From: Limnoraphis robusta CS-951
GTDB taxonomy: Bacteria; Cyanobacteriota; Cyanobacteriia; Cyanobacteriales; Microcoleaceae
Direction: 5' to 3'
DNA length: 23,470 nucleotides
Assembly (NCBI RefSeq): GCF_000972705.2
Contig: NZ_LATL02000224.1
Location: 1 to 23,470, forward strand
A program made the position numbers and the translations under genes. Positions within the stretch are counted from its first letter, which is position 1; every line of letters begins with the position of its first letter. Below the pieces are notes generated by a model. The model was not told the DNA's origin. It was given only the letters and a program-made list of their open reading frames with translations, and did not search any database. Of the stretch, positions 1-13,061 are shown one piece after another.

Positions 1-226
1 CATCCTCTCTCCCCTCTAACGGCATCACCCCCTCAGCAGAACTGACATTACCCAGTAACTCAGCTTCCAAGTAAACCCGTTGATATTGGCTGTGACCTCT
101 GTAGTCGTTGTAATTGTCAGAGACCTGTAACAATTGGATGACATTGGCACGGGCTAGGAGGTCAAAGAAGGCCTTCCAGTTCTCAATCTCTTGTTCCGTT
201 GCAGTTAGTCGGATTTTGGCGGTCAT
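1..226 (-). CDS. Small protein resembling DUF3970, C-terminus cut by window edge
   Basis: Reading the minus strand from the ATG at 226 gives MTAKIRLTATEQEIENWKAF and about 75 codons open to the window edge. The layout, a short beta strand, an 'EEIENWKAFFDLL' type helix, a 'VIQLLQVS' strand and then a polar loop leading to a 'QRVYLEAEL' strand, resembles the small uncharacterised DUF3970 proteins of cyanobacteria. That match is from memory and moderate. An AGGA ribosome site lies about 10 bases upstream. The start lies 44 bases inside the 3' end of the preceding gene, so translation is probably coupled. The sequence GTACATCCT at 228-236, over the ribosome site, also occurs twice in front of the helix-turn-helix gene at 3104 and 3148. 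No function can be given. Confidence 0.6.
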   Translation of the reverse strand, partial: MTAKIRLTATEQEIENWKAFFDLLARANVIQLLQVSDNYNDYRGHSQYQRVYLEAELLGNVSSAEGVMPLEGRED

Positions 227-515
227 AGTACATCCTAGAGCGGGGTAGATTGTTTGCGATCGGGTTGAGCTTGAGCAGTTCTTCGTGTGAGTAACAGTTT
301 CCCCAAATTTTCCCGTCAAAACAGAGCCAATATTGGAGAGAGGTTTCACCGCCCTCTTCAACGCCAATCACATAGGACTCAATTTCACCTACAACAATTT
401 GACCAAAGCGTTCAAACAAAACTTCTTGACCAATAGAAAAGACTGGGTAGCCTAAAGCATCTGCAATATTGTTTTCTACCCAGTCCCAGAATTGTTGTTG
501 AGGGTTAGAATTCAT
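183..515 (-). CDS. Hypothetical soluble protein, 110 aa
   Basis: The reading frame stays open from 545, but the ATG at 515 is the better start. It overlaps the TGA of the upstream gene as ATGA (512-515), a typical coupled stop/start. The product begins MNSNPQQQFWDWVENNIADA. The middle, 'PVFSIGQEVLFERFGQIVVGEIESYVIG', followed by 'YWLCFDGKIWGNCYSHEELL', looks like a small beta-rich barrel, possibly SH3/Tudor-like, with an aromatic-rich second half. No signal peptide or membrane segment is seen. The 3' end overlaps the next gene by 44 bases. I do not recognise the family. It belongs to the small minus-strand operon whose other members are also orphans. Confidence 0.6.
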   Translation of the reverse strand: MNSNPQQQFWDWVENNIADALGYPVFSIGQEVLFERFGQIVVGEIESYVIGVEEGGETSLQYWLCFDGKIWGNCYSHEELLKLNPIANNLPRSRMYYDRQNPTNCNGTRD

Positions 516-847
516 AGCTTGTACTGAGAAGTAGATTGAAGCCATTGATAGATTCTCTCAGCATCTTTCCCTTCAAGGTCAAGACTATCAGCCCCAAAGC
601 TGATGTATAACTCACTAGGTTTTTCTTCAGAAGATGGAGAATATTTATAGAAAGAGATGCGATGCTCATTGAATCCAATGTTTTTAAAGGTTGTTAACTT
701 GTCGAATTTTTCAACAACGTTTTCAAGCTCATCTCGAATCAGTCTAAACTCTTTGTTGTAGTTGTCAAATATTCTAGCTAAGTCAACTATCTTGCAATGA
801 ATTTGACCAATTGAGTTAGCTATTGATGCTAGGTGTTTATCTTCCAT
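512..847 (-). CDS. Hypothetical soluble protein, 111 aa, helical N-terminal half
   Basis: This starts at the ATG at 847, with a GAGG ribosome site about 10 bases upstream. The first 55 residues are helical and charged ('IHCKIVDLARIFDNYNKEF', then 'DELENVVEKFDKL'), which suggests a coiled coil. The second half is strand-rich ('HRISFYKYSP', 'ELYISFGADSL') and ends in a helix. No membrane segment, cysteine motif or catalytic signature is visible. Its stop overlaps the start of the next gene as ATGA. It lies after a 120-base gap behind the first six genes of the minus-strand cluster, so it may be the first gene of a second transcript. The family is not recognised. Confidence 0.6.
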   Translation of the reverse strand: MEDKHLASIANSIGQIHCKIVDLARIFDNYNKEFRLIRDELENVVEKFDKLTTFKNIGFNEHRISFYKYSPSSEEKPSELYISFGADSLDLEGKDAERIYQWLQSTSQYKL

Positions 848-940
848 TATTCAACCTCAGATTAAGTTGTCAAGAATGATGTTTGGATGATAGCCAATTT
901 TTAGTAGTCTCATCGTTCATACTGTTCTGCAATAAATCAG

Positions 941-957
941 GGGGTGATTTACACCCC
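941..957 (-). terminator. Short hairpin after the 968-1396 gene, weak terminator candidate
   Basis: GGGGTG (941-946) and CACCCC (952-957) form a perfect 6-bp stem with a 5-base loop. It sits 10 bases past the stop of the minus-strand gene. There is no clear U-tract on the minus strand, so termination is only a possibility; it could also be an mRNA-end stabiliser. Confidence 0.35.
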
Positions 958-967
958 TATGAACTAC

Positions 968-1396
968 TTAGTTGTTGTCGTGTTCGTCTACTAACTTAGG
1001 TTCAATAACCTCTGAGAGAACAGGCGACGCTTCAACTACGGATGACTGCTCAACAGTAGGCTCTGACTGTCGATTACCTCTGTTGAAAAATTGCTCAATC
1101 TGGGTTAACAAATCATACTGGATTTCTTCAGTCTGGCTTGTCTCCTGAGCTGTGATAAAATCGGTCAACACGTTTAATTCACTGTCTACCCGTTGCCGTT
1201 CACTGATGGCGATGGGTTTGTTTTTGTGGTTGGTGTCGTAGGCTAGGATACTACAACCAAGAGCGGTTGAGGATGCGACTGTTTTCAACAAAATGTCAAG
1301 CTTTGGTGACAATGAGAGAACTGATAACAGTCCAGTACAACCCAACCAGAAACTAACTCGTCTATCAATCCTTTCAGGTATAGAGATTAGAGCCAC
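968..1396 (-). CDS. Hypothetical membrane-associated protein, 142 aa
   Basis: The start is GTG at 1396, supported by AGGAG about 10 bases upstream, and overlaps the end of the preceding gene by 10 bases. Residues about 15-31 ('SFWLGCTGLLSVLSL') and 33-55 ('LDILLKTVASSTALGCSILAY') form one or two hydrophobic segments. The rest is a polar tail rich in Glu, Gln, Ser and Val, with a helical part around 70-105 and an acidic, probably disordered end. The order, a membrane hairpin followed by a cytosolic tail, fits a small membrane scaffold. The protein next to it is also a membrane protein, so they may work together, but this is inference. The family is not recognised. Confidence 0.6.
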   Translation of the reverse strand: MALISIPERIDRRVSFWLGCTGLLSVLSLSPKLDILLKTVASSTALGCSILAYDTNHKNKPIAISERQRVDSELNVLTDFITAQETSQTEEIQYDLLTQIEQFFNRGNRQSEPTVEQSSVVEASPVLSEVIEPKLVDEHDNN

Positions 1397-1644
1397 GCTA
1401 GATTCACTCCTGTGATTGCAGAAATCACTACAAAAGCGGTTTTGACTTGATGAAATCTGCTCTTGTTTGACTCAGCATAGTAGACAAGCAGTCCCCCAAG
1501 AATGATGGTTTTTGCGAGTAGTAAAACTACTAATACCCACTGCCACCAAACTAGATTAGGCTGAATCAATCGGGCTACCAGTAAGGCAATATTAAATGAT
1601 GCCAAACTGAGGGCTATTAAGTCAGCGTACCGGGTACTAAGCAT
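1387..1644 (-). CDS. Small integral membrane protein, 85 aa, about three helices
   Basis: It starts at ATG 1644 with AAGGAAA just upstream, 8 bases inside the preceding gene. The product is nearly all hydrophobic: 'LIALSLASFNIALLVARLI' (about 9-27), 'WWQWVLVVLLLAKTIILGG' (about 33-51), then a short polar loop with Lys and Arg, and 'TAFVVISAITGVNLAWL' at the end. This gives three predicted helices. Its size and position in a run of overlapping genes recall the small membrane subunits of phage-like or conjugative operons, but no specific family is seen. Confidence 0.6.
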   Translation of the reverse strand: MLSTRYADLIALSLASFNIALLVARLIQPNLVWWQWVLVVLLLAKTIILGGLLVYYAESNKSRFHQVKTAFVVISAITGVNLAWL

Positions 1645-2152
1645 AGAGCGTTTCCTTCAGTTGATTGACCTTTTCTCGCCGCAGTTGGAACCGTTCATCA
1701 ATGCGTCCAATTAACGCCTCTCCTTTGACCAGAGAAAGTGATAGCCGTTGGTTCTGTTCATGCAGTCCGGGTTTGAGTTTTCCGTTGAGATATTCTCCTG
1801 TTTTAATCTCGCCATCCCGTGCGTCTAAAATCTTTCCCAGTCGTTGACGTTTGTGACTTTCCTCTGATTTGTAGATGCGTTTAACGGACTCCAAACTGTC
1901 GGTATCAGCACTGAACTTTCCCCGTTGTAAGGTGACTTGTTCTTTCAGCTCTTTGGCTTGCAGTTTAGCGGCTTCAACCTCCTCTGGTGTGAGGCGTTCA
2001 ATCCCGGTGAAATTCCCTCGGTAGTGTTCAGCAAAGTTGTACTGATTGTTGCTGATTGGGGGCGCTGTATTAGCACTTTCAAGAATGCTTTGAGCCTCAC
2101 TCATGGACTGTGAACCGATGGAACTGTTTTGCTTCTTGCGTAGTCCAAACAT
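1637..2152 (-). CDS. Hypothetical charged coiled-coil protein, 171 aa
   Basis: The start at ATG 2152 abuts the TAA of the preceding gene (TAAATG) and follows a strong AAGGAG. The N-terminus is polar and probably unstructured; residues about 50-165 are very rich in Glu, Lys, Arg and Leu ('LTPEEVEAAKLQAKELKEQV', 'RIDERFQLRREKVNQLKETL') and should form long helices or coiled coils. No membrane segment or enzyme motif is present. It sits between two membrane-protein genes and overlaps one of them. It is likely cytosolic and perhaps a partner of the membrane proteins. Unknown family. Confidence 0.6.
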   Translation of the reverse strand: MFGLRKKQNSSIGSQSMSEAQSILESANTAPPISNNQYNFAEHYRGNFTGIERLTPEEVEAAKLQAKELKEQVTLQRGKFSADTDSLESVKRIYKSEESHKRQRLGKILDARDGEIKTGEYLNGKLKPGLHEQNQRLSLSLVKGEALIGRIDERFQLRREKVNQLKETLYA

Positions 2153-2350
2153 TTAATCAATCTCCTTAACGATTGCCGAAACTTTTGCAAAACTGACGGC
2201 TAGATTCTCATCCCAGATTTCCGTCTTGGCGTACATTTGAGCCACTTTATCAATGTGTTGGGATGCTAACTGATTAACCGGGATTGAGGCGGCTTTTGCC
2301 CACAGCCAGAGGATGAGCATAAAGCTATTTCCGAGTAGAAAGTGAATCAT
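2153..2350 (-). CDS. Small protein with one N-terminal membrane helix, 65 aa
   Basis: The frame is open from 2503, but the upstream part overlaps another gene. The ATG at 2350 is preceded by GGAAG, so I take it as the start; it lies 22 bases after the previous stop. The product begins MIHFLLGNSFMLILWLWAKA, a single hydrophobic helix, followed by a mostly helical amphipathic tail ('NQLASQHIDKVAQMYAKTEI') ending in KEID. This is a single-pass anchored peptide. The TAA overlaps nothing but abuts the next ATG. Function unknown. Confidence 0.5.
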   Translation of the reverse strand: MIHFLLGNSFMLILWLWAKAASIPVNQLASQHIDKVAQMYAKTEIWDENLAVSFAKVSAIVKEID

Positions 2351-2372
2351 TACTTCCAAAGAACTGAAAAAG

Positions 2373-2606
2373 TTAACTTCCTTTGTTGTCGTAAGAACAA
2401 ATCTTACGAAGTTGACCGTCTGAGTCTTTATAGTATTCGTTGCGCGTAATCCTCCAGCGACGATTAAGAACTGAATTGTCTGCATAAACGTTAGAGATTT
2501 CACCAGTCTCTTTATCTTTTATCTGCAAATGATCTTGACTGATGATTTTCGCTTCATAGGGTTCATTACTGGGAGTTGCTTCTCCACCAAAAAGCCAATT
2601 AAGCAC
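2373..2606 (-). CDS. Hypothetical small soluble protein, 77 aa
   Basis: The start is GTG at 2606, chosen because a strong GGAGGG sits 8-10 bases upstream and the start overlaps the end of the helix-turn-helix gene by 8 bases. The product begins MLNWLFGGEATPSNEPYEAK and continues with short beta strands ('AKIISQDHLQIKD', 'RRWRITRNEYYKD', 'GQLRKICSYD'). It is basic towards the end. No known domain is recognised. As the second gene of the operon it may act with the regulator before it. Confidence 0.55.
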   Translation of the reverse strand: MLNWLFGGEATPSNEPYEAKIISQDHLQIKDKETGEISNVYADNSVLNRRWRITRNEYYKDSDGQLRKICSYDNKGS

Positions 2607-3099
2607 TTTGGTTCCCTCCGAATGAGCGCTTGAGAATTTCCTCAGAGGTTACGGTGAAACTTTCAGCCAGAGGGGTGAACATTCGGTGAGCCAGTTCAGC
2701 GCCAAACTGTTTGTTTTGAACTCCGACTTCATCGGCCATGATTAGCAGTTGGGATTTCAGATTGTTGATGGCTTGATGAGCATCTGGGACGGGTGAAAGT
2801 TCAGGCTGGTAGGGTTCAACTGGGACTAAAGCAACGGGTTGATCATTTTCTAAGGAGATTGACCGTTGCCATTCCTCATAGGTCATAGTGCCATCTTTCC
2901 CACAACAACTTAAATAGTCCAACAGATAACCGTAGCCTTCCTCAGTCAACATTTCCTCTCCCGTGTCCTCATTGACATTAAAAATCTCTGTCCATGTAAC
3001 CGTTTCTTTAACGCGGGACAAAGGTGACTTTCCACCTCGTCGGGACAGATGCCCCTCAGATAAACCTGTTAACTGAGAAATTTCTGAGATACTGTACAT
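2599..3099 (-). CDS. Helix-turn-helix DNA-binding protein, first gene of the small-gene operon
   Basis: The N-terminus 'MYSISEISQLTGLSEGHLSR' reads as a MerR/excisionase-like helix-turn-helix ('SISEISQLTGLSEGHLSRRG'). A middle acidic region and a helical C-terminal part follow ('AINNLKSQLLIMADEV', 'FGAELAHRMFTPLAES', 'SEEILKRSF'), perhaps for oligomerisation. The start ATG at 3099 follows AAGGA, and the ribosome site and start codon themselves overlap two TGTACA palindromes. This suggests the protein represses its own operon and that the 3093-3196 cluster is its operator, which is inference. It leads six or more overlapping genes. Cys residues 'SCCGKDGTMT' in the middle could be redox- or metal-sensitive, but this is weak. 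Confidence 0.65.
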   Translation of the reverse strand: MYSISEISQLTGLSEGHLSRRGGKSPLSRVKETVTWTEIFNVNEDTGEEMLTEEGYGYLLDYLSCCGKDGTMTYEEWQRSISLENDQPVALVPVEPYQPELSPVPDAHQAINNLKSQLLIMADEVGVQNKQFGAELAHRMFTPLAESFTVTSEEILKRSFGGNQSA

Positions 3100-3196
3100 A
3101 CCTGTACATCCTTAATTTTCAAGGTACTGACGCTTTACGTGTACGTTGTACATCCTTTGATGTACACGTGTACAAATGTTAGATCATGAGTACAGG
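3093..3196. promoter_or_regulatory. Cluster of TGTACA / GTAC palindromes between divergent genes
   Basis: Eight GTAC tetramers occur in about 100 bases (3094, 3104, 3124, 3141, 3148, 3162, 3170, 3190), five of them inside TGTACA. The sequence TGTACACGTGTACA (3161-3174) is a perfect 14-bp palindrome. Two copies of GTACATCCT (3104, 3148) cover the ribosome site and the promoter area of the minus-strand gene; a third copy lies at 228 before another gene of the cluster. This looks like an operator region controlling the minus-strand operon and the plus-strand gene at 3231. The binding protein is not known; the helix-turn-helix protein is the obvious candidate. Confidence 0.6.
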
Positions 3197-3230
3197 TATT
3201 GTCAACCTACAAGTAAATTATTCTTAAGTG

Positions 3231-3428
3231 ATGCCTCAATTATCGGTAACTGTTACGGATGAAGTTTACGCAATCGTCAAGGCTGTGCTTTTGGCTACAG
3301 GCAAGACTCAGAGTTCAGCTTGCGGTGAATGGATTTATAAAGGAGCATTAGCAGAAATGCTTGAATTACAGAAAGCAGGGATTATTAAGCCATCCGATCA
3401 ACCAAAGACTGAACAGCCAGATGAATAA
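3231..3428 (+). CDS. Small ribbon-helix-helix-like protein, 65 aa
   Basis: A GTG at 3228 directly precedes the ATG at 3231; I choose the ATG. The product begins MPQLSVTVTDEVYAIVKAVL. A short beta strand ('LSVTVTD'), helix ('EVYAIVKAVLLATG'), turn and second helix ('SSACGEWIYKGALAEMLELQ') match the strand-helix-helix order of CopG/Arc-type DNA-binding proteins. A polar tail follows. The ribosome site is weak. It is transcribed away from the helix-turn-helix gene across the TGTACA cluster, so both could share that operator. The family call is by shape only; an antitoxin or copy-control role is possible but not shown. Confidence 0.5.
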   Translation: MPQLSVTVTDEVYAIVKAVLLATGKTQSSACGEWIYKGALAEMLELQKAGIIKPSDQPKTEQPDE

Positions 3429-3437
3429 TGCGATCGC

Positions 3438-3750
3438 ATTTCCAGTTCAATGGCCCCCTTGTTTAGCGATCGCACCCTTTACCACCCCAAAAAATTCAGA
3501 AAGTTAGGGGATTAGCTGAGATTGGAATGCGATCGGCCACCTGTTAACCTAAGAACAGTTCTTTCCAATTGCTTTCTCCAGTAAGGAAGGGTGTGATGCT
3601 TGCCCCTAGCCGTCATGGTTAGGGGTTTTACTTTGGGCTATTTGCGATCGCAACTGCTCAATAGACCTGATCAACTTCCCTGCCGAGTTGGATGTGTACC
3701 CCCTCTCCCTTTTTAGTTTTGGGACTGTGTTGGCCAACCAATTCTCTAAC
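3438..3750. other. Gene-free stretch with HIP1 sites and one hairpin
   Basis: No convincing gene is seen. Three GCGATCGC octamers fall within 222 bases (3430, 3466, 3644). A terminator-like hairpin sits at 3603-3629. The right part leads into the TGTNNACA repeat array. Confidence 0.5.
3603..3629 (+). terminator. Rho-independent terminator candidate
   Basis: CCCCTAGCC (3603-3611) pairs with GGTTAGGGG (3617-3625), a 9-bp stem with one G-U pair and a 5-base loop, followed by TTTT. It lies 175 bases after the 3231-3428 gene and is oriented to end its transcript. Confidence 0.6.
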
Positions 3751-3870
3751 TGTATACACCTGTCTACACCACTGTCTACACTGTCTACACCTACCTGTAT
3801 ACACCTGTCTACACCACTGTCTACACTGTCTACACCTACCTGTCTACACCTGTCTACACTACTGTTAACA
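3751..3870. repeat. TGTNNACA iteron array with a 45-bp tandem duplication
   Basis: Eleven TGTNNACA octamers (TGTATACA, TGTCTACA, TGTTAACA) start at 3751, 3761, 3773, 3782, 3796, 3806, 3818, 3827, 3841, 3851 and 3863. The blocks 3751-3795 and 3796-3840 are identical 45-bp copies, and 3841-3870 is a partly diverged third copy. The octamers are 8-bp palindromes or near palindromes. The array lies just past the 3' end of the minus-strand RHH-like gene. There are no spacers of CRISPR type. Most likely a protein-binding array such as plasmid iterons or a partition site. Confidence 0.75.
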
Positions 3871-3898
3871 GATTGCCTGAGCGTTTCCAGTTCTTCAC

Positions 3899-4180
3899 TC
3901 AGGCGTTCAGCTTTCCCAGGCGTTCCTCTAACTCCTCAAAACGTTCATCCAGTCTTGTTTGTAGCTGTTCTAATTCCTCTCTTATATCAGGGGTGTCTAC
4001 ACTGTTAACGGGGGTGTATACAGTGTCTACAGGACTGTTAACAGGGGTGTCTACACCTTGACTGATGGACAGTAACAATCTCTTAGCTGCAAGATTGAGA
4101 CTTTCACCCGGTTCACACTGCCCTCTAAGCCAGTCCAGTTCACTATTTGAGAGTCTAAAGCTAATCAGTTCACTTGCCAT
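3899..4180 (-). CDS. RHH-like DNA-binding protein with iteron-encoded linker and coiled-coil tail, 93 aa
   Basis: The start is ATG 4178-4180; the first TGTCTACA upstream site overlaps it by one base. Residues 1-39 ('MASELISFRLSNSELDWLRG', then 'ESLNLAAKRLLLSI') have the strand-helix-helix order of ribbon-helix-helix proteins. Residues 43-64 are a linker made of V-D-T, V-N-S and V-Y-T triplets separated by Pro, encoded by six TGTNNACA-type sites (3994, 4003, 4015, 4024, 4036, 4048). Residues 65-91 form a heptad-like Leu/Glu/Arg coiled coil ('IREELEQLQTRLDERFEELE'). The same sites lie upstream and downstream of the gene, so it probably binds them and represses itself. A role in plasmid copy control or partition is inferred from this layout. 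Gene is real with good confidence, function moderate. Confidence 0.65.
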   Translation of the reverse strand: MASELISFRLSNSELDWLRGQCEPGESLNLAAKRLLLSISQGVDTPVNSPVDTVYTPVNSVDTPDIREELEQLQTRLDERFEELEERLGKLNA

Positions 4181-4219
4181 GTCTACAGTGTCTACACTAT
4201 CCGTTTACTGGTGTCTACA
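4180..4219. promoter_or_regulatory. Operator-like TGTCTACA sites in the divergent promoter region
   Basis: TGTCTACA occurs at 4180, 4189 and 4212, between the start of the RHH-like gene (4180, minus) and the winged-helix gene (4259, plus). Their position over the start codon and promoter region of the minus gene suggests autoregulation and possibly joint control of both genes. Confidence 0.55.
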
Positions 4220-4258
4220 CCCTACTAGCAGATAGACTAGACTAAAATATCATTGGCC

Positions 4259-4558
4259 ATGTTGAAAGATTTAAGTTACGCCGCCTTCGGATTGTTGGTG
4301 ATGATTCAGAAAAAGTTTAGCGATCGCCCATTCCTTCTCAAAGACGTTCTCAATCGGGGTGAGTCAGCCAGCTCAACCAAGAAACTGTTAAGGGAGTTGG
4401 TAGATGCAAGTTTTATCTCATCCGGTCAACTCAAGCAATCAGCAACAGGTTATTTTTCAGTCCCACATTACCGACTGATTCAACCCCTACCTATCTCCTT
4501 TCTGAATGATGAGGCAACAGACCAGTTAGTTAGAGAGACAGTAGAACTGAGACAGTAG
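4259..4558 (+). CDS. Winged-helix protein resembling plasmid/phage replication wHTH domains, 99 aa
   Basis: A TTG at 4253 is in frame, but the ATG at 4259 is the likely start; no clear ribosome site is seen. The product begins MLKDLSYAAFGLLVMIQKKF. The first helix 'LSYAAFGLLVMIQK', a second helix 'FLLKDVLNRG', a recognition helix 'ASSTKKLLRELVDASFI' and a beta wing ending 'GYFSVPHYRLIQ' match the winged-helix pattern found at the front of many plasmid and phage replication or DnaD-like proteins ('L..KAKGLLAYLL', then 'A..ALKELE..GYL'). No catalytic replication domain follows. It is divergent from the RHH-like gene and ends at a strong terminator. Role as regulator or replication accessory factor is inferred. 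Confidence 0.6.
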   Translation: MLKDLSYAAFGLLVMIQKKFSDRPFLLKDVLNRGESASSTKKLLRELVDASFISSGQLKQSATGYFSVPHYRLIQPLPISFLNDEATDQLVRETVELRQ

Positions 4559-4588
4559 AAAAATTGAGAGTTAAGCATAGAGGTTAAG

Positions 4589-4613
4589 CACCCTTCTCTT
4601 GAGGGGTGTTTTT
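4589..4613 (+). terminator. Strong rho-independent terminator
   Basis: CACCCTTC (4589-4596) pairs with GAGGGGTG (4601-4608), an 8-bp stem with a TCTT loop, followed by TTTTT (4609-4613). It lies 30 bases past the stop of the winged-helix gene. Confidence 0.85.
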
Positions 4614-4616
4614 GTT

Positions 4617-4702
4617 GTGTGCGGGATGATTAACAGAGAGTTGTGCGGATTGTGTGCGGGTTTAAAACTCCTTCTGTATAAAGCTTGTGCGGGGTGTGCG
4701 GG
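4617..4702 (+). repeat. GTGTGCGGG iteron-like direct repeats
   Basis: TGTGCGG occurs five times in the same orientation (4618, 4642, 4653, 4686, 4695); three are full GTGTGCGGG (4617, 4652, 4694). AT-rich DNA follows at 4703-4760. Direct repeats next to an AT-rich stretch resemble an iteron origin, but no Rep gene or clear DnaA boxes are seen, so the role is open. Confidence 0.55.
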
Positions 4703-5096
4703 TTTTACCTTATTTAAATGGGAAAATAAAAAACAAATAATTAAAGAGAGTTACTAGAGAGTATATTTACTTACCTCTTTTAATGTTGATGGTGAAATCA
4801 AGGGTTAACTCTCTGGGCCTGGACACCACAAAATGAAGCACTCACAGAGACGGTTAAAACTGTGTTTTGGTTAACCCGTTGGTGAAGCGTTCAAAACAAT
4901 CAATAACAGAGAGCTGTCAAAACCGTCTCCGTACAGTTGTTATAGAGTAAAGTAAGGAGCAAAGGAGAAGTTGACTAGAGTTCAAGGTTTTTATTTTTTG
5001 AAGTCAGCCCCCTAGCTGGGTGTTTTTGAGTTTAGCTAAATGTGATAAAGTTAGAGATTGGGACTTTTTTTTGTGGAAACCTGGGAGTAAAAAACA
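4703..5096. other. Long non-coding leader in front of rpmH
   Basis: No gene is seen. The part to about 4760 is AT-rich. Inverted repeats GAGACGGTT (4847-4855) and AACCGTCTC (4921-4929) could pair over about 65 bases, and GGTTAA (4852-4857) could instead pair with TTAACC (4871-4876). A TTGACT at 4971 followed by TATTTT at 4992 is a poor promoter match (15-base spacing). The rpmH promoter is expected in this stretch, but I cannot place it. Confidence 0.45.
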
Positions 5097-6241: not shown

Positions 6242-7414
6242 ATGGACTTTGGTATAGGTTTTCTCTCAAACAACATTATGTTGCCGATCCTGGATTTTTT
6301 CTACGGGATCGTGCCGAGCTACGGTTTAGCAATCGTCGCTTTAACGTTAGTCATCCGCTTTGCTCTTTATCCTCTCAATGCTGGCTCTATCCGTAATATG
6401 CGCCGCATGAAAGTGACTCAGCCCTTAATGAAAGATCGAGTCGAGAAGATTCAGCAACAATACAAGGATGACCCCGTAAAACAACGGGAGGAAATGAGCC
6501 GAGTCTACAAAGAACTTGGTAATCCGTTGGCCGGATGCTTCCCCTTGTTACTTCAGATGCCGATTTTATTTGCGCTGTTTGCCACGTTGCGAGGATCACC
6601 GTTTTCCGATGTCAACTACACGGTAGAGCTAGAAATCTTTCCGAAGGAACAGATCGAACGCATTCAACCGCAAGCCTATACCACCAAACCGCAAAACGTC
6701 TACATCGCCGATGGTGTTCACTTCTCGACTGTGGCTTTGCTACCGGGAGGAAATCGCCTGGTTGAAGGAGAAACGGCAAAGGTAGAATTAGAAACGGCTC
6801 AGGGTGAATCCCTAAAAGCTAAACTGGGAAACTATCCAGATACTCAATTCAAACAGAAATGGACTGTACTCAAAGGATCAGAAAAAGTTCAGATCGATGA
6901 TCAAGGTAATATCGTTGCCTTAGAACCCGGACAAGCGACCCTACAAGGCACCTTAAAAGGAATTGCTGCGGATAAAGGCTTTCTGTTTATCGATGCTCTG
7001 GGTCGAGTCGGTGCCTTTGATGAAGATGGCGTGATTCACTGGGACATTGTAGGCATGATTTTAACCTTTGGGATCAGCCTGTATCTAAACCAAGTTCTCT
7101 CTGGGCAAGGAGCCAGTGCGAGTAGCGGAAATCCTCAGCAGGATACGATCAATAAAATTACTCCAGTTCTGTTTACGGGAATGTTTTTCTTCTTCCCCCT
7201 TCCGGCGGGAGTATTGTTGTATATGCTGATTGCCAACATTTTCCAAACAGCGCAGTCGTTTATCCTCTCACGAGAACCCTTACCGGAGAACCTTCAGAAA
7301 ATTGTTGAAGAAGCCAATTCCAAAACGGTCAAAGCAGTCCCTTCATCGGGAGGAGGAACCGGAAAACGAACTTCACTTCCTTTTGAACCCGGAAGTTCTA
7401 AAAAGAAAACATGA
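6242..7414 (+). CDS. yidC: Membrane protein insertase YidC/Oxa1/Alb3 family
   Basis: The product has 390 residues from ATG 6242. It inserts and folds proteins in the cytoplasmic and thylakoid membranes, alone or with SecYEG. Hydrophobic segments lie at about 20-47 ('[20 protein letters not shown]'), 98-117 ('[20 protein letters not shown]'), 267-288 and 303-342 ('[20 protein letters not shown]'). The conserved Arg in 'VIRFALYPL', the positively charged loop '[19 protein letters not shown]' type region and '[15 protein letters not shown]' are typical. A large insertion of about 150 residues (115-265) lies between helices; its end ('[17 protein letters not shown]') looks like a Big2-type Ig fold. 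It is 186 bases after the PH gene and overlaps khpB as ATGA. Confidence 0.95.
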
Positions 7415-7899
7415 TGCAAGCAATGGATGAAGATCAAATGCAACAGGGCAAAGAATGGCTAGAAGAACTCCTCAAAGTCGGGGCGCTCTCCTCAGCCGTT
7501 CAAGTTGCTCAAGAAGAAGACAGTTGCTGGTTAACCATTAACGAAATAAACCTCTCTGCCAAACAAATTACAGCCTTAACAGGTTTCAATGGTGAAGTGT
7601 TGGATGCTCTTCAATACTTGATTAACACCGTCGTCAATTTGGGCAAAGAAGAAGAGGAAAAAGCGGCTTACACTGTAGAATTAAACGGATATCGATTCCG
7701 TCGTTATCAAGAACTCAGCGCCTTAGCTGAAAATGCCGCCAAACAAGTTCAACAAACCGGAGTAGAACTAGAGATTAAATCTCTCTCCTCGGTAGAACGC
7801 CGCTTAATTCATAACATATTGAAAGACAGCGAAGATATCGAAACCTACAGTCGAGGACAAGAACCTGACCGTCGGTTAGTCATCAAGGTCAAAAGTTAG
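7411..7899 (+). CDS. khpB: KhpB/Jag RNA-binding protein (KH and R3H domains)
   Basis: The ATG at 7411 overlaps the yidC stop. A second ATG follows at 7414, but 7411 gives the coupled start. Residues about 20-95 form a KH-like domain with '[20 protein letters not shown]', where the GFNGE loop replaces the usual GKNG type. The C-terminal '[20 protein letters not shown]' followed by '[12 protein letters not shown]' is the R3H signature. KhpB binds RNA, often as a heterodimer with KhpA, and affects translation and cell envelope growth in other bacteria. The gene after yidC is the standard location. At 162 residues it lacks the N-terminal Jag_N domain of Firmicutes. Confidence 0.92.
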
Positions 7900-7953: not shown

Positions 7954-8469
7954 ATGGATGCCATCTACATCCCTCACCTGCTAAAAGTACCTCAGCGCAG
8001 TCTAGAGTTTCAGTTTGAGGAATTTCTCCCCGAACTCGAAACCCTCACACCCGTTAGAGGTCGTTTGAGGGTAACTCATCAAACAACTTACATCGAAGTC
8101 ACGGCTCAAGCCGAAACGATCGTTACACTCACCTGTCATCGGTGTCTCAAACAGTATAACCATCGCCTGAAAGTCGATACATCCGAAATGATTTGGTTGG
8201 ATGTCTCCGCTCATCAAGCTTCTGTCAATGCCCTAGAGGTGGAAATGAATGTCGAAGACCTGGTGGAAACCCTATCTCCCCAAGGTCACTTTGAGCCGAC
8301 AGACTGGTTATATCAGCAATTGTGTTTGCAAACCCCTTTGCGACAACTGTGTGATGGGCCGTGCGAACCGCCTCAACCCACAGCAAAACCCACAACAACA
8401 ACTTCAGAAACTTCAGTCGATAGCCGATGGGCGGCTTTAGAATCTCTCAAACAACAACTATCTGGGTAA
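7954..8469 (+). CDS. YceD family protein (DUF177)
   Basis: A GTG at 7921 opens the frame, but the ATG at 7954 (MDAIYIPHLLKVPQRSLEFQ) matches the usual cyanobacterial start, and GGGAG lies upstream. The middle carries 'TLCHRCLKQY' type CxxC at about residue 70 and a second Cys group 'LRQLCDGPC' near residue 137-142, the metal-binding pattern of DUF177, a family linked to 23S rRNA accumulation in other bacteria and plants. The C-terminal 'DSRWAALESLKQQL' is also typical. The Pro/Thr-rich link before it ('PPQPTAKPTTTTSETS') is long. It lies 20-50 bases after khpB, so probably in the same operon. Confidence 0.88.
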   Translation: MDAIYIPHLLKVPQRSLEFQFEEFLPELETLTPVRGRLRVTHQTTYIEVTAQAETIVTLTCHRCLKQYNHRLKVDTSEMIWLDVSAHQASVNALEVEMNVEDLVETLSPQGHFEPTDWLYQQLCLQTPLRQLCDGPCEPPQPTAKPTTTTSETSVDSRWAALESLKQQLSG

Positions 8470-8550
8470 AATCCCCATCTGCAAGCAAAAACCCTAAATC
8501 AATTCCCCCTTAAAGTTGCTGAAGTTGAACTAGCCACCATCAAAAGCCGG

Positions 8551-10068
8551 ATGACCAAATTTAGTGAGGAGTTGGAGTTACTCCTGCGATCGCGCTACTC
8601 CTTAATCTACATTCCCACCTTAGAAGAAGAGCGGATTGAAATGGCGATCAAACAATCCGCCAAACAGCAAGGAAATCGAGCCGTCTATATTTGGGATTTT
8701 GTGGAAGGCTATCAAGAAGGCAATCCGAATGACCAGGGATTTGGCTGCCGAAATCCTCTTCAGGCGCTAGAATTTGTCGAAAAACTGGCAGATTCTAGCC
8801 CCGCGATTTTCATTTTACGGGACTTTCATCGCTTCCTCGATGACCTCTCAGTTTCTCGTAAACTTCGCAATCTCGCCAGACGCTTAAAGTCTCAACCGAA
8901 AAATATTATTCTCATCTCGCCGCAGGTGGCAATTCCCCAAGACTTGAGTGAAGTGCTAACGGTTCTCGAATTTCCTTTACCCGATCGCCCGGAAATTCAA
9001 GCTGAGGTTGAACGGTTATTAGCCGCCACAGGACATCGGCCCGATGTTCGTCAACTTGATGAGATGGTGCGCTCTTTTCAAGGACTTTCTATTGAACGCA
9101 TCCGCAGGATTTTAGCGAAAGCGATCGCCACTCACGGAGAACTGCGTCTCGATGATCTCGATCTGATTTTAGAAGAAAAACGGCAAACGATTCGTCAAAC
9201 TCAAATTCTAGATTTCTATCCCGCCCAAGAAAATATTTCCGATATCGGAGGCTTAGATAACCTCAAAGATTGGCTACTACGGCGGGGAAGTGCCTTTTCC
9301 CAACAGGCTCGACAGTATGGCCTGCCCTATCCGCGAGGATTGCTGCTCGTCGGAATTCAAGGTACCGGAAAATCCCTCACAGCCAAAGCGATCGCTCACC
9401 ATTGGCACCTACCCCTATTACGCTTGGATGTGGGGCGGTTATTTGGGGGTTTAGTGGGAGAATCGGAATCAAGAACCCGACAAATGATTCAACTCTCAGA
9501 AGCCCTCGCGCCCTGTGTGTTGTGGATAGATGAAATTGATAAAGCGTTTTCGGGAATGGATGGCCGAGGGGATTCTGGAACCGCTAATCGCGTGTTTGGG
9601 ACGTTCATCACCTGGTTGGCTGAAAAAACCTCACCTGTGTTTGTGGTGGCGACGGCTAATAATATTCAGTCCTTACCGCCGGAAATCTTGCGGAAGGGGC
9701 GATTTGATGAAATCTTCTTTGTCGGTTTACCTTCCCAGGAAGAACGACTAGCTATTTTTGAGGTGCATTTATCCAAACTACGGCCTCATGGCATCAAAAA
9801 TTATGATATAAACCGTTTAGCTTATGAAACTCCCGATTTTTCTGGGGCTGAAATTGAACAAATTCTGATTGAAGCGATGCACATTGGTTTTAGCCAAAAT
9901 CGTGACTTTACCACTGAAGATATTTTAGAAGCCGCCAGTCAAATCGTTCCCTTGGCTCGTACCGCCCAAGAACAAATTCAATTTCTGCAACAGTGGGCGG
10001 CGGCGGGGAAAGCACGGCTGGCGTCTCGCAATAGCAATCTGAGTCCTCGCTTTCCCGCAGAGGATTAA
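8551..10068 (+). CDS. ycf46: Ycf46-type AAA ATPase
   Basis: The product has 505 residues from ATG 8551. The N-terminal third (to about residue 230) is the Ycf46 region, a degenerate AAA-like fold ('YSLIYIPTLEEERIEMAIKQ'). The AAA module follows: Walker A GIQGTGKS at 268-275, 'GGLVGESESRTRQMI' pore-loop region, Walker B 'CVLWIDEIDKAF' at 322-333, sensor 'VATANN', and the arginine-finger stretch 'LRKGRFDEIF'. All catalytic residues are present. Ycf46 is conserved in cyanobacteria and red-algal plastids and has been linked to carbon use and photosynthesis. There is a HIP1 site in the coding region at 8588. It lies 81 bases after yceD. Confidence 0.95.
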   Translation: MTKFSEELELLLRSRYSLIYIPTLEEERIEMAIKQSAKQQGNRAVYIWDFVEGYQEGNPNDQGFGCRNPLQALEFVEKLADSSPAIFILRDFHRFLDDLSVSRKLRNLARRLKSQPKNIILISPQVAIPQDLSEVLTVLEFPLPDRPEIQAEVERLLAATGHRPDVRQLDEMVRSFQGLSIERIRRILAKAIATHGELRLDDLDLILEEKRQTIRQTQILDFYPAQENISDIGGLDNLKDWLLRRGSAFSQQARQYGLPYPRGLLLVGIQGTGKSLTAKAIAHHWHLPLLRLDVGRLFGGLVGESESRTRQMIQLSEALAPCVLWIDEIDKAFSGMDGRGDSGTANRVFGTFITWLAEKTSPVFVVATANNIQSLPPEILRKGRFDEIFFVGLPSQEERLAIFEVHLSKLRPHGIKNYDINRLAYETPDFSGAEIEQILIEAMHIGFSQNRDFTTEDILEAASQIVPLARTAQEQIQFLQQWAAAGKARLASRNSNLSPRFPAED

Positions 10069-11195: not shown

Positions 11196-13061
11196 ATGGA
11201 CTCTTATGCTTATCTTCATCTGGCAGTCGTCTACGAAGACCCTTCTCAATACCCATTAAAACCGCCTGCAAGTATTAATTGGAACAAATTTTCATCTCTG
11301 ACTTACCGCTATTTTTTATCTCTGGCTTTACTCGTCGCTGTCTTATCCGTTTCTCAATCTGCTTCGGCTCAGGTGATTCGTGAAGGCGATCGCGGAAGCG
11401 AAGTGAGTGCGATCCAAAGCTCCTTACAATCTTTAGGTTTCTTCAATTCTAATGTTACAGGTTTTTTCGGGCCAATTACTCGTGAGGCCGTCATTCGCTT
11501 CCAACAATCTCGGGGACTGTCGGCCGATGGGGTTGTTGGCCCGAATACTTTAGCTGCTTTGGGACTCAGCCAACCTCAAAATCCACCGTTTCCTCCAATT
11601 AGTCGAGCCGTCATTGGTTTAGGTCAAGGGGATAGCGGCCCTGGAGTCAGGGATTTACAAACCCGTTTACGTCAGTTGGGTTATTTTAACACTGAACCGA
11701 CAGGCAATTTTGGGTCAATTACTCGTGATGCAGTGATTCGGTTTCAGCAAGTCAACCGCATTCCTGTAACCGGGTTAGTCAGCGAAGAAACCCTGGTTTT
11801 TCTCAATAACAGAATTCCGACTCTTCCGGGAAACCCAAATCCCACTCCTCTGCCTTCAGGAACACTCAAACGAGGAGATACCGGGCCTGCTGTGGGGGTC
11901 TTACAACAACGGCTATTCCGCTTAGGCTTTTATAACGGACAAATTAACAACTTTTTTGATGTTGCCACAGAACAAGCGGTGATTCGTTTTCAACAAGCTT
12001 ACGGAATTCAACCCACAGGTCAAGTCGGGCCAACAACCGTAAGTTATTTGATCAGCGCCACAGGAGAGGGAATTCCGTCAGTTCCCAGTGTTCCGATTGT
12101 TAATCCTCCAGTCAACCTGCAATTAGGCGATCGCGGAGGTTCTGTCAGTGTATTACAGCAAAGATTGCGAGTATTAGGCTACTATAGCGGCCCGATGAAT
12201 GGGATTTTTGATTTAACGACTCGACGAGCTGTACTGGCTTTTCAGCGAGATTATGGTATCGCTCAGACGGGAGTTGTTGGGCCGACAACTCAATCTTTTC
12301 TGGTCAGAGCAGTTCCTGAGTTTCAACCTGTAGCTGTTTCTCAAGTGCCGAATTGGTTCGCTCCCCAAGGTCGGCCGTTTAATATTGCCCCACAACCCAA
12401 CCTACTGCCCCCTCAAGGTCGTCCGACGGTGATTTCTGAGGTTTATGACGGAATTGTACCTCAAGGTCGTCCGACGCTGATTCCCGAGGTGTCTGACGGG
12501 GTTGTTTCTCAAGGTCGTCCGTTGAACCCTTCTCCATTAACTCCAATTTCACCTGTAGCGACTTATCGCAGCGTTGTGAGTGTTGGAGATACAGGCTTTG
12601 AAGTCAGAAAAGTTCAACAACGACTGCGAGAGTTGAACTACTACCGAGGGCCGATTAATGGGTTTTTTGATCGCACGACTGAAGATGCAGTGCTTCGCTT
12701 TCAAAGGGCGAATGGGATTACTCAAACGGGTGTAATCGGCCCGACAACACGCATTTATATGTTTAATAGCGCTCAAGCTTCTGGGTCTACTTCGAGGGCG
12801 GATGCTTCTCCTTCTGTCGCTTCTCCCTCAACTCAAACGGCTCAAACTCTCCCGTCAACCCCGACGCTCAAAACTGAAAATCCTCCTATTCGTACCGCTA
12901 GCGTACAAGAGTTACAGAAACGCTTGCAAGTTCAAGGACTTTATCAAGGGCCGATTGACGGCGTTTACAATTCTCAAATGGAAGTTGCTCTTAGCAAAGC
13001 ACAAGAACTCTATGGTACCAGTGCCAATGATGTGCTGTTCGGCGGGTTACAATCTAAATAA
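11196..13061 (+). CDS. Secreted protein with six peptidoglycan-binding repeats
   Basis: The 621-residue product begins MDSYAYLHLAVVYEDPSQYP, a cytoplasmic leader familiar from cyanobacterial homologues. The membrane segment 'YFLSLALLVAVLSVSQSASA' ends near residue 58, where a signal peptidase cut is likely. Five clear PG_binding_1 domains follow, each with 'GD.G..V..LQ..L..LG.Y' and 'T..AV..FQ...G', starting near residues 59, 138, 222, 310 and 462; a sixth, shorter one is near 565. These three-helix domains bind peptidoglycan. No enzyme domain is attached, so it is probably a wall-anchoring or structural protein. Residues about 386-440 carry four QGRP repeats at a 48-base period. It ends at a bidirectional terminator shared with fur. 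Confidence 0.9.
   Translation: MDSYAYLHLAVVYEDPSQYPLKPPASINWNKFSSLTYRYFLSLALLVAVLSVSQSASAQVIREGDRGSEVSAIQSSLQSLGFFNSNVTGFFGPITREAVIRFQQSRGLSADGVVGPNTLAALGLSQPQNPPFPPISRAVIGLGQGDSGPGVRDLQTRLRQLGYFNTEPTGNFGSITRDAVIRFQQVNRIPVTGLVSEETLVFLNNRIPTLPGNPNPTPLPSGTLKRGDTGPAVGVLQQRLFRLGFYNGQINNFFDVATEQAVIRFQQAYGIQPTGQVGPTTVSYLISATGEGIPSVPSVPIVNPPVNLQLGDRGGSVSVLQQRLRVLGYYSGPMNGIFDLTTRRAVLAFQRDYGIAQTGVVGPTTQSFLVRAVPEFQPVAVSQVPNWFAPQGRPFNIAPQPNLLPPQGRPTVISEVYDGIVPQGRPTLIPEVSDGVVSQGRPLNPSPLTPISPVATYRSVVSVGDTGFEVRKVQQRLRELNYYRGPINGFFDRTTEDAVLRFQRANGITQTGVIGPTTRIYMFNSAQASGSTSRADASPSVASPSTQTAQTLPSTPTLKTENPPIRTASVQELQKRLQVQGLYQGPIDGVYNSQMEVALSKAQELYGTSANDVLFGGLQSK

What the first reader, a model, noticed from the sequence alone, without database searches (positions are those of the whole stretch)
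3751..4219. Twenty TGTNNACA-type sites arrayed after, inside and before one RHH-like gene
Nineteen perfect TGTNNACA octamers and one TGTTAACG fall within 470 bases: eleven in an array with a 45-bp exact duplication, six inside the gene 3899-4180, three over its start and promoter. TGTATACA and TGTTAACA are perfect palindromes and TGTCTACA is close. A small RHH-like protein with a coiled-coil tail coded by the same DNA is the likely binder. This resembles plasmid partition or copy-control systems but with the sites spread through the gene, which I do not recognise from a described system.
Basis: partly seen in the sequence, partly recalled or inferred. Interest (0 to 1): 0.78.

Follow-up and report, generated by a model that had tools for sequence, protein, structure and literature searches.

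The report
Frameshifted regulator with built-in binding sites
A small DNA-binding regulator of cyanobacterial mobile elements appears to be made in a short and a long form by a programmed slip of the ribosome, and the DNA that codes for its linkers seems to double as an array of its own binding sites.

Summary
Observation confirmed: 19 TGTNNACA plus TGTTAACG lie in 3751-4219. One thing changes: the 11-site array "after" the gene is coding. It lies in a -1-frame extension of the same gene, entered at a frameshift signal (SD-like GAGG, G_GGA_AAG, 6-nt spacer, hairpin). The signal recurs in divergent homologues with compensatory hairpin changes; one Lyngbya relative carries the long form as one ORF. 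Of 47 homologues, 27 have at least 3 sites upstream plus in the gene. Intragenic sites exceed synonymous-codon expectation (94 versus 29 or 18) and are read in different frames, so selection acts on DNA. Upstream sites repeat every 10.75 bp. A paralogue has the same anatomy with TGTNNNNACA. 17 of 47 neighbourhoods hold a replication-type protein cluster. Most likely: an RHH-like coiled-coil autoregulator, made in two forms, coats these arrays, represses its promoter and builds a nucleoprotein complex on its element. Partition or copy control is plausible, unproven; a ParA-type motif was found in 1 of 47 loci. Binding, frameshifting and function are inferred from sequence.

The parts
4180..4219 (.). 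Promoter/start sites: TGTCTACA at 4180-4187 (touching the ATG), 4189-4196 and 4212-4219
   Evidence: Upstream arrays recur: 26 of 47 homologues have at least 2 sites within 300 bp upstream.
3899..4180 (-). Short product, 93 aa: RHH-like N-terminus, V[DNY][TS]P linker, coiled coil; stop TGA at 3899-3901
   Evidence: AF2 helices 12-20, 28-40 and 64-92, low confidence.
3994..4055 (.). Linker-1 sites: 3994, 4015, 4024, 4036, 4048, plus TGTTAACG at 4003
   Evidence: 5 perfect sites against 0.61 (max 4) from codon draws.
3925..3928 (-). SD-like GAGG, starting 11 nt upstream of the slippery heptamer
3911..3917 (-). Slippery heptamer G_GGA_AAG, in frame, 19 nt before the end of the stop codon
3875..3904 (-). 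Hairpin (9 bp, -13.7 kcal/mol) starting 6 nt after the heptamer
   Evidence: covariation across 14 cassettes
3609..3917 (-). -1-frame extension, 103 codons from the slip site (stop TAG 3606-3608): rest of the coiled coil, linker 2, C-terminal domain
   Evidence: C-terminal part aligns with the in-frame C-terminus of the Lyngbya protein P0020/L002.
3751..3870 (.). 11-site array inside linker 2 of the -1 extension
   Evidence: 11 sites against 1.04 (max 5, codon draw) or 4.74 (max 9, codon permutation).
3746..3865 (.). 45-bp (15-codon) repeat, 2.7 copies, within linker 2
3609..3758 (-). C-terminal domain LENWLANTVPKLKRERGYTSNSAGKLIRSIEQL and tail
4253..4558 (+). Divergent 101-aa ORF facing the promoter sites; possible second target
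   Evidence: phrog_11718 E=3e-4, unknown function

Best explanation
This is the regulator gene of a cyanobacterial integrative/plasmid-like element. It encodes an RHH-like DNA-binding domain, a linker and a coiled coil. At G_GGA_AAG, 19 nt before the end of the stop codon, part of the ribosomes shift to -1 (SD-like stimulator upstream, hairpin downstream) and add more coiled coil, a second linker and a C-terminal domain, so a short and a long form are made. Dimers bind TGTNNACA octamers about one helical turn apart on one DNA face, in the promoter and in the DNA coding for both linkers; the linkers are written largely by the sites. Binding shuts off the promoter. The intragenic arrays nucleate a larger complex on the element, which probably helps its upkeep (silencing, copy number or segregation). 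Strongly supported by sequence: the arrays, DNA-level selection on them, the conserved frameshift signal, coding of the -1 frame. Inferred: binding by this protein, repression, two forms in cells, the upkeep role, and that the window copy lies in such an element.
For: Sites. Intragenic sites in 47 homologues: 94 against 28.7 (sd 4.2, max 43, permutation) and 17.9 (sd 3.8, max 31, draw); 49 in the V[DNY]x frame, 42 in the [LVM][SF]T frame, 3 in the third. Palindrome scan without a preset motif: TGTNNACA ranks first in 26 of 47, its extension TTGTNNACAA in one more; L085 has 12 TGTNNNNACA before, in and after its ORF. Upstream spacing period 10.75 bp, 312 pairs. Frameshift: in-frame heptamer near the stop in 16 of 22 genes with a -1 extension of at least 40 codons against 2 of 25 without, Fisher p=5e-6, relatives not independent; hairpin 5-6 nt downstream in all 16 of those; 6 of 12 hairpin pairs with double changes, 21 cells, 0 of 500 shuffles for cells and covariation score. 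In the window the first ATG/GTG/TTG of the -1 frame is its 61st codon, past the array, and a -1-frame stop lies 18 nt before the slip. -1-frame substitutions by codon position 423/350/931 in 8 relatives. In-frame long relative P0020/L002. Cassette scan: 26 of 2961 ORFs, 24 of them RHH-type. Site pairs lie mainly at the elements in G282 (28 of 33) and G265 (9 of 10).
Against: 20 of 47 homologues have fewer than 3 sites; sites versus strand motif is not significant per cluster (p=0.10). L002 has no site within 300 bp upstream. In G283 only 1 of 4 site pairs is by the gene, against 2 control pairs. Intragenic spacing is less regular (best 10.0 bp, coherence 0.31, 142 pairs). No RHH Pfam model passes its cut-off for these proteins; the AF2 model lacks the strand and has no convincing PDB match. 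3 of 18 heptamer genes lack an SD-like sequence (L100, L106, L114), and GAGG also codes for the conserved EE. Most cassettes have GGGAAAA, which PMC4066793 calls inefficient in earlier E. coli work but lists in its efficient V_VVA_AAR class (passages). L156 has the heptamer but a 15-codon extension; L114 a weak hairpin (z 0.03). The number of doubly changed hairpin pairs alone is reached by 116 of 500 shuffles. Window hairpin region z -1.86 on dinucleotide shuffles against -4.0 on mononucleotide ones. Before the first start codon the third-position bias is weaker (40/44/77). 13 of 47 homologues, and 9 of the 16 cassettes, are one close cluster. The window's other genes were not matched to the relatives' element genes. 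No experiment was found.
Confidence: 0.73

Rival explanations
1. The main job is segregation or copy control: the array is a centromere or iteron set, and the long and short forms are parts of a segregation complex without a ParA motor.
For: Arrays sit away from promoters as well, in linker 2 and in a second element gene; a replication-type protein cluster is in 17 of 47 loci (two members carry DUF5906/D5_N, one of them DUF3854), and DUF3854 proteins include plasmid Reps (PMC10079941, passages); tandem element copies in L116 and L117; a plasmid relative of the arm-like head has a ParA-like gene beside it, though no slip signal was seen there (L171).
Against: 1 of 47 loci has the ParA-type motif KGG[VTAS]G[KR][ST] (L122; variants with I at that place were not sought). 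The window copy lies about 1 kb from rpmH, in a chromosome (by eye). Promoter arrays alone are explained by autoregulation.
Confidence: 0.35
2. The repeats are selected as peptide (a flexible VDTP/VNSP linker); the octamers follow from codon use and bind nothing.
For: In the window gene all 5 perfect linker-1 sites are in the same frame; codon permutation alone gives 4.74 of the 11 sites of linker 2.
Against: Upstream regions carry the same octamers at helical spacing; homologues use another frame ([LVM]ST); synonymous controls fall short.
Confidence: 0.05
3. No programmed frameshift: the downstream ORF is a separate gene, a decayed fusion or a sequencing error.
For: One-frame fusions exist (L002; L110 and L158 by eye); records annotate two overlapping or adjacent ORFs for relatives (L166, L170, L173).
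Against: Heptamer, spacing and hairpin are conserved with covariation; no usual start codon before the 61st codon in the window; -1-frame coding constraint.
Confidence: 0.05
4. Another protein of the host or the element, not this one, binds the octamers.
For: L002 lacks sites within 300 bp upstream but has six before a neighbouring gene.
Against: Site pairs follow this gene in G282 and G265; a paralogue with a different strand has a different site spacing.
Confidence: 0.1

Closest known systems
Omega (RHH ParB) of pSM19035 with its parS/operator arrays (PMC9499535, abstract and passages seen)
   Same: RHH protein, arrays of 7-10 short repeats, one dimer per repeat, sites overlap promoters including its own
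   Different: Omega sites are 7-bp contiguous non-palindromic heptads at promoters with a partner ParA; here 8-bp sites with inverted TGT/ACA ends about 11 bp apart, also inside coding linkers, a ParA-type motif in 1 of 47 loci, and two products by frameshift
TrcR of Anabaena (PMC10272220, abstract and passages seen)
   Same: Cyanobacterial RHH autorepressor with sites at its own promoter
   Different: Site ATACTACACTTGTATTAC; no array, intragenic sites or frameshift mentioned in the passages seen
-1 frameshift signals of dnaX and IS3-family genes (PMC4066793, abstract and passages seen; dnaX details recalled)
   Same: X_XXA_AAR heptamer, SD-like stimulator upstream, structure downstream; GGGAAAG and AAAAAAG are among the most efficient motifs in E. 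coli
   Different: Here the product is a DNA-binding regulator; most relatives have GGGAAAA, four have GGGGGAG
msi172/msi171 of a symbiosis ICE (PMC5009743, passages seen; that it is Mesorhizobium is recalled)
   Same: A frameshift product controls an integrative element
   Different: +1 shift, needed for excision, other protein family (recalled)
CyRepA-type plasmids (PMC10079941, passages seen)
   Same: DUF3854 replication protein, as found beside the regulator in L117
   Different: The passages seen mention no RHH regulator or arrays

Membership tests
Ribbon-helix-helix superfamily | Family profile match above cut-off | tested here: not met
   No RHH model passes: RHH_1 E=0.061 (L126) and NikA-like E=0.0064 (L131), none for the window protein at E<=1. 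PDB profile search of 12 N-terminal cores: best 1x93 (HP0222) E=0.027; that HP0222 is RHH is recalled.
Ribbon-helix-helix superfamily | Strand-helix-helix with intertwined dimer | tested here: inconclusive
   AF2 gives two helices of suitable position but no strand, pLDDT 68, monomer only
Programmed -1 frameshift gene | In-frame slippery heptamer before the stop with open -1 frame | tested here: met
Programmed -1 frameshift gene | Stimulators: SD-like sequence and downstream hairpin, conserved | tested here: met
   SD-like in 15 of 18 heptamer genes; hairpin
Programmed -1 frameshift gene | Fusion product detected | not testable with these tools
   Needs expression or mass spectrometry
ParABS partition system | ParA-type ATPase gene beside the DNA-binding protein | tested here: not met
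   KGG[VTAS]G[KR][ST] in 1 of 47 loci (L122), none in the window. A motif scan only; ParM was not sought.
ParABS partition system | Array of binding sites near the gene | tested here: met
   Array present; that it is bound is not tested
Autoregulated repressor | Sites over its own promoter | tested here: met
   Window 4180-4219; 26 of 47 homologues have at least 2 upstream sites. The promoter itself was not mapped.
Autoregulated repressor | Repression by its own product | not testable with these tools
   Needs a reporter assay
TrcR family | TrcR operator ATACTACACTTGTATTAC | not tested
   The motif was not searched for; the arrays seen are a different sequence

The most novel reading that the evidence does not exclude
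A self-contained maintenance module in one gene: the coding sequence is at once the gene for a DNA-binding protein, its operator and its centromere-like array, and a programmed ribosomal frameshift sets the ratio of a short form to a long form. The frameshift module (slip, hairpin, coiled coil, C-terminal domain) has been joined to different DNA-binding heads (this RHH-like head, an Arc-like RHH, an arm-like domain) across cyanobacterial plasmids and integrative elements.
Probability: 0.4. Interest if true: 0.9.

Novelty: new variant of a known kind. Interest (0 to 1): 0.78.

Why it matters
If right, a family of regulators on cyanobacterial mobile DNA uses programmed frameshifting, which annotation splits into two 'hypothetical' ORFs (seen in L166, L170, L173), and low-complexity linkers are shaped by the DNA sites they carry. 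That gives a clear case of coding sequence doing double duty, a way to recognise unannotated plasmid regulators, and a possible route to stable vectors in cyanobacteria. The searches made showed no such report among the papers listed from the open-access library held; several of these lists were capped, and most subscription papers are not in it.

Tried and rejected
Array as noncoding DNA after the gene: rejected, it is in the -1 extension. ParA partner: motif scan, 1 of 47 loci. Homology of the window's leftward genes to the relatives' element genes: best E 0.019, not accepted, so the window element is not shown to carry the same replication protein. AF2 plus PDB fold search: uninformative. 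PDB profile search with A1: only weak, unrelated hits. Plasmid search with the window protein: one distant Calothrix record; none in phages; window 1-5000 no DNA match in plasmids; a typed relative's protein gave no plasmid match. Viral collection: the pattern search filled its 80-stretch list and was not used; two relatives without octamers within the stretch tested (L136, L137). Class-wide genome search: 5 of 388, one of them new (G652). Paper searches for the octamers listed unrelated papers. Pfam on ten long forms and neighbours: no credible C-terminal domain. Not every place was fetched, so the 47 genes are a part of the family.

Full report
OBSERVATION. One search finds 20 TGTNNACA in 23470 bases where dinucleotide shuffles give 5.99 (largest of 100: 14); 19 of them are in 3751-4219, plus TGTTAACG at 4003. 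The 45-bp repeat is real.

WHERE IT LIES. The window is cyanobacterial: the 93-aa protein matches Limnoraphis robusta proteins, and four entries named Tam1 are 87-97% identical, so it is multi-copy there. The array is about 1 kb from what look like rpmH and rnpA (by eye), so this copy seems chromosomal. No whole genome is held for the window. The ten leftward and nearby proteins scanned have no credible Pfam family.

HOMOLOGUES. Profile A1 hit 48 of 388 genomes of the order at E<=0.001 and 5 of 388 of the class at E<=1e-4, one of them new. From the loci fetched (not all places) I took 47 distinct homologous ORFs at E<=0.01; counts below use all 47 unless stated. They are related: single linkage at 60% of the RHH-like core gives 18 clusters, one with 13 members; 7 clusters have a member with at least 3 sites, 11 a member with a shift signal, and all 7 are among the 11 (lists of signals entered by hand).

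SITES. 27 of 47 have at least 3 sites in 300 bp upstream plus the gene; 26 have at least 2 upstream, 21 at least 2 inside, 19 both; 20 have fewer than 3. A scan of palindromic triplets and quartets with spacers, without a preset motif, ranks TGTNNACA first in 26 of 47 and its extension TTGTNNACAA in one more. Upstream pair distances have a period of 10.75 bp (coherence 0.51, 312 pairs), as expected for dimers on one DNA face; inside genes the best period is 10.0 (0.31, 142 pairs). Inside genes the 94 sites exceed synonymous permutation (28.7, sd 4.2, max 43 of 2000) and codon draws (17.9, sd 3.8, max 31); 49 are in the V[DNY]x frame, 42 in the [LVM][SF]T frame and 3 in the third. The peptide changes, the DNA word stays. 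A Lyngbya aestuarii paralogue (L085) has 12 TGTNNNNACA before, inside and after its ORF: similar half-sites two bases further apart, with a different N-terminal strand. In four genomes chosen for long contigs, pairs of adjacent sites at the elements are 28 of 33 (G282), 9 of 10 (G265), 1 of 4 (G283) and 1 of 1 (G379); reversed-pattern controls give 1, 0, 2 and 0. A second element gene (RRIDKL...) carries sites in its linker: 6 copies tested (two are identical tandem copies) have 2-5 sites against codon-draw means of 0.41-0.65; in L120 (2), L116 (4) and L134 (3) the control maximum reaches the observed number.

FRAMESHIFT. Downstream of the window stop the -1 frame is open, 103 codons from the slip to a TAG. 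It holds the whole 11-site array and a C-terminal domain that aligns with the in-frame C-terminus of the Lyngbya protein P0020/L002. The first ATG/GTG/TTG of that frame is its 61st codon, past the array, and a -1-frame stop lies 18 nt before the slip, so ordinary initiation cannot make the array-coding part. The signal is G_GGA_AAG at -19, GAGG 11 nt before it, and a 9-bp hairpin 6 nt downstream. Over 47 genes an in-frame heptamer within 30 nt of the stop occurs in 16 of 22 with a -1 extension of at least 40 codons and 2 of 25 without (Fisher p=5e-6, relatives not independent); ORFs of at least 150 aa in the same loci have one in 16 of 320. All 16 have a hairpin 5-6 nt downstream; 15 of the 18 heptamer genes have an SD-like sequence within 16 nt, though it also codes for the conserved EE. 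On 14 cassettes (4 of the 18 left out: L105 and L107 repeat others, L149 and L156 lack the extension) the hairpin pairs in 90.8% of cells, with 6 of 12 pairs and 21 cells doubly changed; 0 of 500 shuffles reach the cell count or the covariation score, while the number of doubly changed pairs is reached by 116 and the number of pair types by 179; slid controls pair in 23-35%. RNAalifold finds the same stem. The -1 frame of 8 relatives shows codon-position substitutions 423/350/931; before the first start codon the bias is weaker, 40/44/77. Against: the window region has z=-1.86 on dinucleotide shuffles, L114 has a weak hairpin, L156 a short extension. Four further genes (L094, L099, L102, L154) have GGGGGAG with a hairpin near 6 nt on, and L109 GGAAAAG with one 4 nt on. 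A scan of 2961 ORFs from 56 loci for motif, extension and hairpin gave 26: 24 RHH-type genes (tandem copies included; three entries are an Arc-like RHH with the same tail), a plasmid gene in L166, and one (L138) probably chance. Plasmids of Aulosira (L170), Tolypothrix (L173) and Scytonema (L172, weak hairpin, 41 codons) have GGGAAAG at -19 and a -1 extension in a gene with a different head; Nostoc L171 has none; Oscillatoria pOSC7112.05 (L169) has head and tail in one frame. In E. coli CCCAAAG, GGGAAAG and AAAAAAG are the most efficient heptamers; GGGAAAA, found in most relatives, is called inefficient in earlier work there and is in the efficient V_VVA_AAR class of that study (PMC4066793, passages).

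ELEMENTS. A replication-type protein cluster is in 17 of 47 neighbourhood loci; of two members scanned both have DUF5906 and D5_N (one D5_N match just under cut-off) and one has DUF3854. DUF3854 proteins include plasmid Reps (PMC10079941, passages); partial relatives occur in 82 plasmid records, none covering 80%. One tyrosine recombinase is shown by Pfam (L117). L116 and L117 hold tandem copies 9055 and 7112 bp apart (positions). A ParA-type motif is in 1 of 47 loci. The window element itself is not shown to have these genes.

MECHANISM. The simplest account is an autoregulator: promoter arrays, one-face spacing, site change with strand change. The intragenic arrays and the two forms go beyond a plain operator and suggest a larger complex on the element; whether for silencing, copy number or segregation is open. 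Omega of pSM19035 works like this at promoters and parS (PMC9499535, passages), but with ParA and contiguous heptads, so this is not filed as an Omega or ParABS member. RHH membership is likely but no curated cut-off is passed.

VERDICT. Observation confirmed; interpretation partly supported and extended by the frameshift. New variant of known kinds; interest 0.78.

Noticed in passing
window 3093-3174: Five TGTACA palindromes (9 in the window) between the divergent ORFs 2599-3099(-) and 3228-3428(+), the latter itself RHH-like by eye: a possible second autoregulator with a tighter site.
   Followed up: partly
L166, L170, L172, L173 (plasmids): A like -1 frameshift signal and coiled-coil tail joined to an unrelated, arm-like (by eye) N-terminal domain in named cyanobacterial plasmids; L169 has the fusion in one frame, and L171 has a ParA-like gene beside a relative without the signal.
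   Followed up: partly
L116 1478-1527, L130 1601-1674, L134 1245-1300, L155 1276-1358, L138 14861-14967: A second array in or beside a linker of a putative membrane protein gene (RRIDKL...), about 5-7.5 kb from the regulator in the same elements.
   Followed up: partly
L116, L117: Tandem duplication of the element, offsets 9055 and 7112 bp.
   Followed up: no
L002 about 4001-4550 and 7050-7500: Long inverted repeats (by eye) flank the Lyngbya copy, with six octamers before a neighbouring gene at 6920-6982.
   Followed up: no
L117 13097-13390, L120 420-713: An Arc-like RHH gene (PF03869 E=0.0017, below cut-off) has the slip and tail, while the A1-type gene beside it lacks them.
   Followed up: partly
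L094, L099, L102, L154: GGGGGAG instead of a standard heptamer, with a hairpin near 6 nt downstream and an open -1 frame: a non-standard shift motif or a coupled restart.
   Followed up: partly
L118 about 8240-9232: Repeated SINIPSEWG/HSLGILIEW-type ORF pieces next to the regulator look like a CRISPR array (by eye).
   Followed up: no
window 12411-12521: 48-bp tandem repeat, 2.3 copies, inside the ORF 11196-13061.
   Followed up: no
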